Below, piece after piece: positions 3,794 through 6,677 of a stretch of DNA of 22,782 nt. Position 1 is the stretch's first letter, and each line of letters opens with the position of its first letter. This DNA is from a virus. The position numbers were made by a program, and so were the translations under genes. Below the pieces are notes generated by a model, which did no database searches, was not told the DNA's origin, and saw nothing but the letters and a program-made list of their open reading frames with translations. The DNA lies in the IMG/VR virus record IMGVR_UViG_3300047564_000493, positions 1-22,782 of that record. One strand, 5' to 3'.

Positions 3794-4099
3794 ATGACTT
3801 TATTCACACTTACCCTTGCTGCTCTCGCCTCTTGGTATGGCCATCCCTATCACGGGAGAACCACTGCTAACGGTGAGACTTACAACATGAATGCAATGAC
3901 TGCTGCACACCCGTCTCTTCCGTTTGGAACAAAGGTCAGGGTCTGCAGTAAGAAGACTGGCCGCTGTGCTGTGGTACGAATCAATGATCGTGGACCGTTT
4001 GTTCATGGTCGTTCAATTGATCTCAGCAAAGCAGCTGCTCAACGCATTGGTGTGTACAGCGAGGGCGTAGGTGAAGTATCAATTACCCCTGCAAACTGA
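3794..4099 (+). CDS. RlpA-like double-psi beta-barrel protein (putative lytic transglycosylase)
   Basis: A 101-residue protein that is almost entirely one RlpA-type double-psi beta-barrel. It shows the family landmarks in order: A-S-W-Y-G near residue 12, T-A-N-G-E-T-Y-N, T-A-A-H, L-P-F-G-T-K-V-R-V, V-V-R-I-N-D-R-G-P-F and G-R-S-I-D-L-S. Bacterial RlpA proteins cleave naked peptidoglycan glycan strands at division sites. The Glu of G-E-x-Y, the His of T-A-A-H and the Asp of N-D-R-G-P are present; the residue that is Asp in some RlpAs after G-E-x-Y/F is Asn here. No SPOR domain and no lipobox are present; only about 12 hydrophobic residues precede the domain, so a true signal peptide is doubtful. 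It sits between scaffold and capsid genes, an odd place for a lysis gene, and could be a virion or lysis-helper enzyme. The ATG at 3794 has no clear Shine-Dalgarno sequence. Confidence 0.88.
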   Translation: MTLFTLTLAALASWYGHPYHGRTTANGETYNMNAMTAAHPSLPFGTKVRVCSKKTGRCAVVRINDRGPFVHGRSIDLSKAAAQRIGVYSEGVGEVSITPAN

Positions 4100-4420: not shown

Positions 4421-4771
4421 ATGGCTAATGCCACTCAAACCGTATTCGGTACGCTTAACAAAGCCGTAGCCGATACCTCTGGTTCGCGTGCTTACGATAC
4501 TAAGTACGCAACTTATCTGAAACTGTTTAGCGGTGAGATGTTCAAGGCGTATGAAAGCGCCACCATCGCTAAAGGAACTGTTCAAAGCCGCACCCTGAAG
4601 AATGGTCGCGCGATGCAGTTCATCTTCACTGGCCGCATGATGGCTGGTTACCATACCCCTGGTACTCCTATCCTGGGTAGTGGTGATCCCCCGGTGGCAG
4701 AGAAGACCATCGTCTGTGACGACCTGCTGATCAGCTCGGCATTCGTCTATGACCTGGATGAAACTCTGGCT
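4421..4771 (+). CDS. Major capsid protein, exon 1 (residues 1-117)
   Basis: Codes for the N-terminal 117 residues of the T7-like capsid protein (T7 gp10 equivalent, HK97 fold), the subunit of the icosahedral shell. The sequence Y-D-T-K-Y-A-T-Y-L-K-L-F-S-G-E-M-F-K-A-Y-E and A-E-K-T-I-V-C-D-D-L-L-I-S-S-A-F-V-Y-D-L-D-E-T-L-A is typical of cyanopodovirus MCPs. The frame reads straight into a TGA at 4772-4774, formed by the first three intron bases, so an unspliced message yields only this fragment. The product continues without a missing residue in exon 2 at 4981, giving L-D-E-T-L-A joined to H-Y-S-L-R-S-E. The joined protein is 338 residues, reasonable for the family. The last 8 nt of the exon form the 5' half of intron helix P1. 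Confidence 0.93.
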
Positions 4772-4980
4772 TGAAGTAATGGGTCAGAGTATAATAAATT
4801 GGAAGAATTGCTGGAACCCTAAGTCTTCGGATATGGCGATCAGCAGCCGAGCCTCTTACGCTTAAGAGGAAGGTTCAGAGACTAGGCGGGTTGGGAAGCG
4901 TCCCATGTAATACGCCACAAGCATCCAACACCATTTGGTGAAGATATAGTCCGAACCTAGTCGAAAGACTAGTACGTTTG
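4772..4980 (+). ncRNA. Self-splicing group I intron without ORF, inside the capsid gene (group IA-like)
   Basis: A 209-nt insertion whose removal restores the capsid frame. P1: exon CTCTGGCT (4764-4771) pairs with GGTCAGAG (4782-4789; as RNA G-G-U-C-A-G-A-G), placing the conserved U.G pair exactly at the 5' splice site. P10: GTAATG (4776-4781) is complementary to the first six bases of exon 2, CATTAC (4981-4986). P3: TTGGA (4799-4803) with TCCAA (4924-4928). P4: TTGCTG (4808-4813) with CAGCAG (4841-4846). P6: CCTCTTA (4852-4858) with TAAGAGG (4863-4869). P7: GACTA (4880-4884) with TAGTC (4947-4951), flanked by GGTTC/GAACC (4872-4876/4953-4957). A hairpin between P7 and P3 (4885-4916, inner GGGA/TCCC) suggests subgroup IA (P7.1/P7.2). 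P8: 4929-4940. P9: 4957-4972, closed by a GAAA tetraloop. The last base is G. The conserved AAGATATAGTCC segment is at 4941-4952. No homing endonuclease is encoded. Confidence 0.96.
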
Positions 4981-5646
4981 CATTACTCCCTCAGAAGCGA
5001 AATCGCCGCTAAGATCGGCCACGCTCTGGCTGAGGCTTACGACAAGAAGATCTTCCGCACCATTGCTAAGGCTGCTCGCGAAGCTCACCCCATCACTGCT
5101 GCTCCTGGTCCTGAGCCCGGCGGTTCTGTGATCCAACTGGGTGTGCAAAAAGAGTATGACGCTCAGGCCCTGGTTGATGCCTTCTTTGAGGCTGCTTCGA
5201 TCATGGATGAGAAGAACCTTCCCAAGCAAGGTCGTCAGGCTATCCTTTCTCCTCGTCAGTACTACGCCCTGATCTCGCAGGTTGACAGCAACATCCTGAA
5301 CCGTGACTACGGTAACAACCAGGGTAGCCTCACCAGCGGCGAGGGCCTGTATGAGATCGCTGGTATCCCCATCAAGCGTTCCAACAACCTGCCCTTCCTG
5401 GCTGGTACTGTCAACGCTATCAGCGGTGAGAACAACGATTACTCCGGTGACTTCAGCACCCACTGTGGTCTGATCTACCACAAAGATGCTGCTGGTGTGG
5501 TTGAGGCCATCGGTCCTCAAGTGCAGACCACCGGCTCTGACGTGAAGACCCTGTATCAGGGTGACGTTGTTGTGGGTCGTCTGGCCATGGGTTGTGGCAC
5601 TCTGAATCCCGCCGCTGCTATCGAACTGCAGTCGGCACGTAGCTGA
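4981..5646 (+). CDS. Major capsid protein, exon 2 (residues 118-338)
   Basis: Codes for the remaining 221 residues of the capsid protein, beginning H-Y-S-L-R-S-E-I-A-A-K-I-G-H-A-L-A-E-A-Y-D-K-K-I-F. It includes the conserved G-G-S-V-I-Q-L-G stretch, Y-D-A-Q-A-L-V-D-A-F-F-E-A-A, L-S-P-R-Q-Y-Y-A-L-I and the C-terminal D-V-V-V-G-R-L-A-M-G-C-G-T-L-N-P-A-A-A-I-E. A TTG at 4978 could mimic an independent start, but the protein would begin in the middle of the capsid fold and lacks a ribosome binding site; splicing explains it fully. Codon use is GC-richer and more biased than in the internal virion genes, as expected for the most expressed phage gene. The gene is followed after 17 nt by a small gene with a strong Shine-Dalgarno. 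Confidence 0.95.
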   Translation, partial: HYSLRSEIAAKIGHALAEAYDKKIFRTIAKAAREAHPITAAPGPEPGGSVIQLGVQKEYDAQALVDAFFEAASIMDEKNLPKQGRQAILSPRQYYALISQVDSNILNRDYGNNQGSLTSGEGLYEIAGIPIKRSNNLPFLAGTVNAISGENNDYSGDFSTHCGLIYHKDAAGVVEAIGPQVQTTGSDVKTLYQGDVVVGRLAMGCGTLNPAAAIELQSARS

Positions 5647-5663: not shown

Positions 5664-5882
5664 ATGTCTATTGCACCTGGATCTTCTCGTCTTGTCACTC
5701 TTGGTGGAGCATCTGCTGCGCCCAACACCCCGAACGGCAAACTGTTTGGTTCTTCCAAAACTGTGAAGTCGTTCACTCTCAATCCGATGTCTCCTTTGGA
5801 GTATGGCCGGACTGTGAGTGGTGGTGAGGCTCTGAAAGCTACGTCTGCCTCCTCCATTGCTGGCAACACATCTGCTGCATAA
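5664..5882 (+). CDS. Small protein after capsid gene, possible virion component
   Basis: A 72-residue Ser/Ala/Gly-rich protein with few charged residues, starting at an ATG with a strong Shine-Dalgarno (GGAGGAACAG from 5651). It contains G-K-L-F-G-S-S-K-T-V-K-S-F-T-L-N-P and P-L-E-Y-G-R-T-V-S-G-G. It lies between the capsid gene and a late terminator, in a block of three small genes with similar codon bias, so it is probably expressed as strongly as the capsid and may be a minor capsid or decoration protein. I do not recognise a family. Confidence 0.8.
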   Translation: MSIAPGSSRLVTLGGASAAPNTPNGKLFGSSKTVKSFTLNPMSPLEYGRTVSGGEALKATSASSIAGNTSAA

Positions 5883-5907: not shown

Positions 5908-6396
5908 ATGTCCGTAACCATCAATAGCACTAACGGGGCGGTTAACTACCAGCCCGATATGATGCAGCTCAGCAACATTGTTACGGCCAACCAGACCGTG
6001 ACCAACAGCGCCACCCTGGTGACCGTTCCTGAGCTGACTCTTGCCGTTGGTAAGTATGAGCGCGTAGCGTTTAACTACCAAGTTTTCTATACCACCACTG
6101 CAAGTGGTGACCTGAAGTATCGAGTGGATGTCCCTGCATCCCCGACTTCCCTGCGTATCCTGCTGGAAGAGCAAGCCCCCACTGCCTCTGCCACTGTAAC
6201 CACCATCCTTACCTCTGAAGCCGACGACACGATTCTGGCTGCTTCCGGTACTGAGGGTTACATCAACATCAAAGGCGTTCTGGTCAATGGTGCCAACGCT
6301 GGTGATGTGATCTTCCAGTTCGCTCAGAACACTGCTACCGGCTCTGAGTCCGCTGTGATTCTGTCCGGTTCCTTCCTTGAGTATCGGAGGTTCTGA
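5908..6396 (+). CDS. Putative capsid-associated or decoration protein
   Basis: A 162-residue, probably all-beta protein rich in Thr, Ala and Val with very few Lys/Arg. The segment Q-T-V-T-N-S-A-T-L-V-T-V-P-E-L-T-L-A-V-G-K-Y-E-R-V-A-F and the C-terminus G-A-N-A-G-D-V-I-F-Q-F-A-Q-N-T-A-T-G-S-E-S-A-V-I-L followed by L-E-Y-R-R-F look like a beta-sandwich; I have seen this kind of sequence in marine phage structural genes, but cannot name the family. It follows the capsid gene and precedes the late terminator. Some cyanopodoviruses carry capsid knob or horn proteins, so a surface role is plausible but unproven. The ATG at 5908 has only a weak TTGGGA upstream. Confidence 0.85.
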   Translation: MSVTINSTNGAVNYQPDMMQLSNIVTANQTVTNSATLVTVPELTLAVGKYERVAFNYQVFYTTTASGDLKYRVDVPASPTSLRILLEEQAPTASATVTTILTSEADDTILAASGTEGYINIKGVLVNGANAGDVIFQFAQNTATGSESAVILSGSFLEYRRF

Positions 6397-6398
6397 TC

Positions 6399-6677
6399 AT
6401 GGCTAATACCACGACTGCTAACGGTCTGGGTGGTAGCGCCGGCACTGTGAGCTTTGCTAACCGCACGGTAACTGGTGCCTACGGTTCTACCTACACCGAC
6501 AACGGCAACCTGGCTGTCTCTGATAACCACGCTGTTCGCCGCTCTGTGGCTCGTACCAGCCGTTCTGCTCCGACCACCGCTTCTGGTGTGTTCTCGGAGA
6601 CCCAAGGTCTGCGCTTTGCGTATGCCGGTGTTGAGGCGGATTCTCCGTCGCTCGACGCTACCCGCACTGCTGTCTGA
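6399..6677 (+). CDS. Small putative virion protein before the late terminator
   Basis: A 92-residue Thr/Ala/Ser/Gly-rich protein with an Arg-rich centre (V-R-R-S-V-A-R-T-S-R-S-A). It starts 2 nt after the previous stop, with GGAGG at 6385-6389 as Shine-Dalgarno, so the two genes are probably coupled. Codon use matches the capsid gene, suggesting high expression. It is the last gene before the intrinsic terminator. No family recognised; a minor structural role is inferred from position. Confidence 0.78.
   Translation: MANTTTANGLGGSAGTVSFANRTVTGAYGSTYTDNGNLAVSDNHAVRRSVARTSRSAPTTASGVFSETQGLRFAYAGVEADSPSLDATRTAV

What the first reader, a model, noticed from the sequence alone, without database searches (positions are those of the whole stretch)
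4772..4980. ORF-less group I intron interrupting the major capsid protein gene
The capsid frame stops with TGA at the first intron bases and resumes 209 nt later with the exact expected continuation (L-D-E-T-L-A | H-Y-S-L-R-S). Both splice sites are fixed by base pairing: an 8-bp P1 with the U.G pair at 4771/4782, and a perfect 6-bp P10 between 4776-4781 and 4981-4986. P3, P4, P6, P7, a P7.1/7.2-type hairpin, P8 and a GAAA-capped P9 can all be drawn. Group I introns are known in T7-like DNA polymerase genes and in cyanophage psbA; I do not recall one in a T7-like cyanophage capsid gene.
Basis: partly seen in the sequence, partly recalled or inferred. Interest (0 to 1): 0.95.

Follow-up and report, generated by a model that had tools for sequence, protein, structure and literature searches.

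The report
Self-splicing intron in cyanophage capsid gene
The main shell-protein gene of this cyanobacteria-infecting virus is interrupted by a 209-letter self-splicing RNA with no gene of its own. The same element sits at the same spot in about twenty other uncultured viruses but not in their close relatives, so it appears to be a small mobile element that jumps between capsid genes.

Summary
Window 4772-4980 is a 209-nt ORF-less group I intron (Rfam RF00028, 73.1 bits, E 4e-17) between codons 117 and 118 of a T7-like (P-SSP7/S-CBP1-type) cyanophage major capsid gene. Splicing restores a 338-aa capsid protein that matches uninterrupted homologues across the junction.

Beyond the finding: the same intron lies at the same codon in 19 other IMG/VR contigs (12 distinct sequences in all). 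Helices P1, P6a, P7.1, P7.2, P8, P9 and P10 carry compensatory changes. These include exon-intron pairs (P1, P10), where synonymous codon choice in the capsid exon follows the intron guide. Intron-bearing genes are scattered on the capsid tree (at least 12 gains or losses), and introns are more alike (87%) than their exons (71%), which suggests horizontal spread. Related introns occupy five further sites in T7-like capsid genes, sometimes two per gene.

No homing endonuclease was found beside the gene, so the mode of mobility is open. Splicing is inferred, not shown. Capsid-gene group I introns are known elsewhere (LittleE, Tuc2009, crAss-like phages). None of the 50,697 isolate phage records showed one at this site. 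New member of a known kind, with an unusual multi-site, patchy distribution.

The parts
4421..4771 (+). exon 1 of the major capsid gene (codons 1-117)
   Evidence: phrog_27239/phrog_267 major head protein; spliced product PF21703 Gp10A-like, E 7.6e-82 and T7-like capsid 2XD8, E 7e-110
4772..4980 (+). ORF-less group I intron, 209 nt, begins UGA in the capsid frame, ends in G4980
   Evidence: RF00028 73.1 bits; longest stop-free run inside is 47 codons, none a plausible gene; covariation
4981..5646 (+). exon 2 of the major capsid gene (codons 118-338 and stop)
   Evidence: phrog_267 E 3e-50
4763..4790 (+). P1: exon 4763-4771 pairs with internal guide 4782-4790, U4771.G4782 at the 5' splice site
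   Evidence: 3 of 9 pairs with compensatory change, U.G and the next C-G invariant in 12/12
4776..4986 (+). P10: 4776-4781 pairs with exon 2 4981-4986
   Evidence: 3 of 6 pairs with compensatory change, 97% of cells paired
4799..4928 (+). P3: 4799-4805 with 4922-4928 (one A.A mismatch)
   Evidence: near invariant, core
4808..4846 (+). P4 4808-4814/4840-4846 with P5 stem inside
   Evidence: invariant in all 12
4847..4873 (+). P6 4847-4848/4872-4873 and P6a 4852-4857/4864-4869
   Evidence: P6a 4 of 6 pairs with compensatory change, 100% paired
4880..4951 (+). P7: 4880-4884 with 4947-4951
   Evidence: invariant (guanosine-site helix)
4885..4916 (+). P7.1 4885-4888/4913-4916 with P7.2 4892-4896/4901-4905 nested, a group IA-type extension
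   Evidence: 5 of 9 pairs with compensatory change, 100% paired
4929..4940 (+). P8
   Evidence: 3 of 4 pairs with compensatory change
4957..4972 (+). P9 with GAAA loop
   Evidence: 5 of 6 pairs with compensatory change

Best explanation
It is a small autocatalytic group IA-type intron in the late capsid transcript. After transcription, P1 and P10 bring exons 1 and 2 together. An exogenous guanosine bound in P7 attacks after U4771, the freed exon 1 attacks after G4980, and the joined message encodes the full 338-aa capsid protein. An unspliced message stops at once (UGA, the first intron codon) and would give only a 117-aa fragment. In evolution it behaves as a mobile element: it recurs at one fixed site in divergent T7-like cyanophages with a patchy distribution. 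Because it carries no endonuclease gene, mobility most likely depends on an endonuclease encoded elsewhere (as with S-PM2 psbA and F-CphI) or on ordinary recombination between co-infecting phages. Shown here: anatomy, splice-site fit, covariation, patchiness. Inferred: splicing in the cell, chemistry, mode of mobility.
For: RF00028 hit and hits over the cut-off in all 19 other intron-bearing contigs. Exact exon restoration against 85 uninterrupted homologues. 97.9% of cells paired, 23 pairs with two-sided change against 10.4 +/- 1.8 in shuffles and 1-5 in slid controls. Exon-intron covariation in P1 and P10. Codon choice tied to the guide: G at exon position -4 in 14/15 intron-bearing against 48/182 intronless genes, p 3.5e-7, 9e-6 after removing near copies; U at -1 in 15/15 against 119/182, p 0.003. 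Patchy distribution needing 12 gains or losses, bootstrap range 12-12. Introns 87% identical while exons are 71%. L104 versus its intronless near twin L144: mismatches pile up within 66 nt of the insertion site (15% against 2%, p 5e-8), as expected of co-conversion of flanks during homing.
Against: No RNA data; splicing is not shown. No endonuclease gene was found in or next to the intron. The Endo VII gene of this phage population sits beside the exonuclease gene, the place it occupies in an intronless relative, so it is not a specific partner. The co-conversion signal is only suggestive: 4 of 147 intronless control pairs are as extreme, because capsid genes recombine anyway. Intron-bearing loci were found with conserved-core patterns, which favours similar introns and inflates the 87%.
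Confidence: 0.93

Rival explanations
1. The intron is inherited vertically from an old ancestor and has been lost many times, rather than spreading horizontally.
For: The site is identical everywhere, and intron and exon identities correlate (r = 0.52), with the window pairing with L089 in both.
Against: It would need many losses: 12 changes for 15 carriers on a 197-gene tree. A non-coding intron would have to stay 87% alike while its coding exons fell to 71%. It crosses the deepest split of the tree.
Confidence: 0.2
2. The intron is a regulatory device: splicing efficiency, dependent on GTP and RNA folding, limits or times capsid synthesis in the host.
For: The capsid is a late, highly expressed gene. 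All 20 introns begin with an in-frame UAA or UGA. A paper cites regulation of psbA by its intron in cyanophage (PMC8557907).
Against: Most close relatives do without it, so it is not needed. Early stop codons are also common in selfish phage introns (general knowledge).
Confidence: 0.12
3. The insert is a dead intron or the gene is a pseudogene.
For: No expression data exist.
Against: The exons flanking the site are open in all carriers. Splice-site pairs covary with exon codons. The core is invariant in 12 distinct copies. A major capsid gene is essential and no second copy was seen in the window.
Confidence: 0.03
4. Ribosomes hop over the 209 nt (translational bypassing) instead of RNA splicing.
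For: The frame is phase 0 and stops exactly at the insert.
Against: The insert has a complete group I core and covarying P1/P10, which bypassing would not need.
Confidence: 0.01

Closest known systems
Cyanophage S-PM2 psbA group I intron (and S-RSM88, S-SRM01, S-CBWM1)
   Same: Group I intron in a cyanophage gene, small and ORF-less in S-PM2; the best sequence relatives among isolate phages (68% over 85% of the intron for S-PM2, 75% over 76% for S-SRM01).
   Different: Sits in psbA of T4-like myoviruses. S-PM2 has the free-standing endonuclease F-CphI next door (PMC6083498); no such neighbour here.
Mycobacteriophage LittleE capsid intron
   Same: Intron in a major capsid gene; splicing shown by RT-PCR and by sequencing the N-terminus of the virion protein (PMC3706429).
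   Different: About 820 bp, siphovirus, encodes a reverse-strand endonuclease; no sequence comparison was made here.
crAss-like phage Delta/Zeta group capsid introns
   Same: Group I introns in capsid genes, several per gene (PMC7886860).
   Different: Recognised by intron-encoded endonuclease domains; gut phages. Here the introns are about 200-250 nt and those examined are ORF-less.
DNA polymerase introns of T7-like phages, including cyanophage Pf-WMP3
   Same: Group I introns in T7-like phages (PMC3428280; PMC6083498).
   Different: Different host gene; the Pf-WMP3 intron encodes endonuclease I-PfoP3I.

Membership tests
Group I intron (RF00028) | Conserved catalytic core P3-P4-P6-P7-P8 fitting the covariance model | tested here: met
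   73.1 bits, E 4.4e-17, full model 1-253; core pairs invariant or nearly so in 12 sequences
Group I intron (RF00028) | U.G wobble pair at the 5' splice site in P1 | tested here: met
   U4771.G4782; U.G in 12/12
Group I intron (RF00028) | Terminal G of the intron and P10 with the 3' exon | tested here: met
   G4980; all introns end in G; P10 covaries
Group I intron (RF00028) | Exact restoration of the interrupted gene | tested here: met
Group I intron (RF00028) | Guanosine-initiated self-splicing | not testable with these tools
   needs an in vitro transcript and labelled GTP
Group IA subgroup | Extra P7.1/P7.2 (or P7.1a) stems between P7 and P3 | tested here: met
   both stems covary, 5 of 9 pairs; IA1 versus IA2 not resolved
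Mobile (homing) group I intron | Encodes a homing endonuclease | tested here: not met
   no ORF in the intron; HNH_3 and GIY-YIG absent from 19 carrier contigs; LAGLIDADG not searched
Mobile (homing) group I intron | Patchy distribution at a fixed site | tested here: met
   at least 12 changes on the tree; 6 of the 80 nearest marine segments carry it
Mobile (homing) group I intron | Co-conversion of flanking exon | tested here: inconclusive
   strong in L104/L144, but 4 of 147 intronless pairs are as extreme
Collaborative homing (F-CphI type) | Free-standing Endo VII-type endonuclease adjacent to the interrupted gene | tested here: not met
   Endo VII in only 2 of 19 carrier contigs, not next to the capsid gene, and also in 10 of 20 intronless relatives

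The most novel reading that the evidence does not exclude
The capsid gene of T7-like cyanophages is a multi-site landing place for ORF-less group I introns. These spread between phages, and perhaps between sites in one gene, without any endonuclease of their own: by an unidentified trans-acting endonuclease or by reverse splicing guided by the short target (sites C and D share a (G/T)GGT|GA target and a GCCC guide). Splicing thereby gates capsid production.
Probability: 0.3. Interest if true: 0.7.

Novelty: new member of a known kind. Interest (0 to 1): 0.52.

Why it matters
It puts a mobile ribozyme into the main structural gene of a globally abundant phage group whose capsid gene has been proposed as a field marker (PMC9860041); intron-bearing genes would be split by gene callers. 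The two dozen or so natural copies, with close intronless twins, give a test bed for how an intron without an endonuclease moves and for how a coding exon and a splice guide co-evolve codon by codon.

Tried and rejected
Endo VII as the homing partner: found in the same phage population, but next to the exonuclease gene as in intronless S-SRP01, and in half of the intronless relatives tested, so more likely a core nuclease. ORFs downstream of the capsid gene (5664-5879, 5908-6393, 6399-6674) as endonucleases: no endonuclease match. MFE folding of the single sequence does not give the full pseudoknotted core, as expected; z -2.2 only. RNAalifold mispairs the P3 5' strand with the P7 3' strand, since it cannot draw the pseudoknot. 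A general claim of co-conversion over all carriers: not supported, only L104 is strong. One codon-compatibility count used a guide shifted by one base; it was redone and the first number is not used.

Full report
WHAT IS THERE. The window is a 22.8-kb virus contig with the structural half of a T7-like cyanophage genome: portal, scaffold, an RlpA-like DPBB protein, major capsid, tail tube, nozzle, internal virion proteins and tail fibre. The capsid frame opens at 4421 and stops at 4772-4774 (UGA). The rest of the protein resumes at 4981. Joining 4421-4771 to 4981-5646 gives 338 aa with PF21703 E 7.6e-82. The nearest solved structure is 2XD8, a T7-like capsid protein, E 7e-110. Rfam finds one RNA in the whole window: RF00028 at 4763-4973, 73.1 bits, E 4.4e-17, spanning the full model.

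THE SPLICE SITES ARE EXACT. The 85 intronless homologues pulled first from IMG/VR and from isolates (S-CBP1, S-CBP3, S-CBP4, S-SRP01, DSL-LC07) read DLDETLA|HY.LR.E across the point of insertion, as the spliced window gene does. Exon 1 ends in U and the intron ends in G. A second assembly (L091) is 99.99% identical over 13,091 bp and has the same insert.

IT IS A FAMILY. Degenerate patterns across the intron 3' end and exon 2, and across the P6/P7 core, found 19 further contigs with this intron at the same codon boundary: 20 with the window, 12 distinct intron-plus-flank sequences. All 20 introns start with an in-frame UGA or UAA and end in G. RF00028 scores over the cut-off in all 19. The window's nearest intron-bearing relative other than L091 is L089 (92% intron identity, 83% exon identity). 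The other carriers have marine-type capsid proteins about 45-68% identical to the window's.

COVARIATION. On the 12-sequence alignment a hand-set group I structure of 62 pairs is 97.9% paired. Twenty-three pairs show changes on both sides, against 10.4 +/- 1.8 when 3' partners are shuffled and 1-5 when they are slid by 1-3 columns. The peripheral helices (P6a, P7.1, P7.2, P8, P9) covary; the core (P4, P6, P7) never varies. The decisive part is that P1 and P10, which join intron to capsid exons, covary too. When the His codon changes from CAU to CAC (L096) the intron base changes from A to G; when the Tyr codon becomes Phe (L118, UAC to UUU) the P10 strand follows; when Ala (GCU) becomes Ser (UCU) the guide changes from U to A in four of five sequences. 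In the population, intron-bearing genes use G at exon position -4 in 14/15 against 48/182 intronless genes (p 3.5e-7; 11/12 and p 9e-6 after removing near copies). They have U at -1 in 15/15 against 119/182 (p 0.003). Synonymous codon choice follows the splice guide, so the pairing matters in nature. Alternatively, insertion may favour such alleles.

MOBILITY. On a tree of 197 capsid genes, 15 carriers need 12 gains or losses, forced by well-supported branches. Introns average 87% identity while 590 nt of exon average 71%; the pattern search favours similar introns, so the contrast is an upper bound. In an intron-independent search the site-A intron is in 6 of the 80 nearest marine capsid segments. 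Carrier L104 and intronless L144 differ at 20 of 132 positions around the site but at 9 of 458 elsewhere (p 5e-8). The flank of L104 resembles L098/L146-type genes rather than its own clade. That is what co-conversion during homing would leave, but 4 of 147 intronless pairs are as extreme, so it is a lead only. The intron has no gene. HNH_3 and GIY-YIG endonucleases are absent from the 19 carrier contigs, many of which are fragments. Endo VII is in two carriers but also in ten of twenty intronless relatives, and in the window's phage population it sits next to the exonuclease gene as in S-SRP01.

MORE SITES IN THE SAME GENE. Introns with RF00028 scores of about 99-110 bits also lie at FSG|EMFK (site D: L102 and seven more contigs; L311 and L313 hold only the 3' part, and in L313 no model hit was reported). 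Others lie inside the codon after GAE in GAEFHTPG (site F, L311), at DVSV/VYQG (site B, L118 and L129) and at VYQG|DV (site C, L109), and at LFL|KVFSG in a more distant T7-like capsid gene (site E, L139; found by pattern, not scored with Rfam). L102, L109, L118, L129 and L311 carry two introns in one capsid gene. Exon-intron boundaries of sites B, E and F were placed by reading frame and the U/G rule, not by covariation.

COMPARISON WITH WHAT IS KNOWN. Among 50,697 isolate phage records the window intron's best full-length relatives are psbA introns of cyanomyoviruses S-PM2/S-RSM88 (68%), with S-SRM01 at 75% over three quarters; no capsid gene appears among the listed hits. Capsid-gene introns are published for mycobacteriophage LittleE, with Tuc2009 cited there (PMC3706429), and for crAss-like phages with several per gene (PMC7886860). 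T7-like phage introns are known in DNA polymerase. Searches of the open-access library found no report for a T7-like cyanophage capsid gene; subscription papers and preprints were not searchable.

VERDICT. The finding is real and correctly read. It is a new member of a known kind; the scattered, multi-site family without endonucleases in one essential gene is the part a specialist would want to follow. Splicing itself and the route of spread remain to be shown.

Noticed in passing
L102 4854-5533 (-), L118 and L129, L109 8026-9144, L311 4789-5285 (-): Capsid genes of T7-like cyanophages with two group I introns each, at sites D, F, A, B or C.
   Followed up: partly
L314 1605-1660 (-), L317 608-663, L315 9117-9172, L312 6011-6064 (-), L316 5798-5851 (-): Glutamine-II riboswitch hits about 340-480 nt upstream of the site-D intron, on the capsid gene's strand and upstream of the gene.
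   Followed up: no
L117 (capsid reading shown), with similar introns in L111, L130, L141: A different group I intron next to an HK97-type capsid gene (PF05065 in L117); 3' exon reads PPREFYLGLTELTDAEGG.
   Followed up: no
L123, L125, L126, L128, L136, L138, L140 and near copies L112, L114, L132: A cluster of very similar introns in viral contigs; in L138 the downstream frame matches uracil-DNA glycosylase (PF03167). Several have an endonuclease-like ORF upstream (by eye).
   Followed up: no
L310 (S-SRM01) 381-537, 1024-1224, 1491-1672: Three group I intron-like matches around the broken-up psbA of S-SRM01; the paper suggests one intron holding an endonuclease.
   Followed up: no
window 3794-4096: RlpA-like DPBB protein (PF03330) between scaffold and capsid genes, also in S-SRP01; psbA stands in this interval in S-CBP1.
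   Followed up: no
window 5908-6674: Two ORFs of 162 and 92 aa without known domains between the capsid and tail-tube genes, where S-CBP1 and S-SRP01 have one small ORF of about 60 aa.
   Followed up: no
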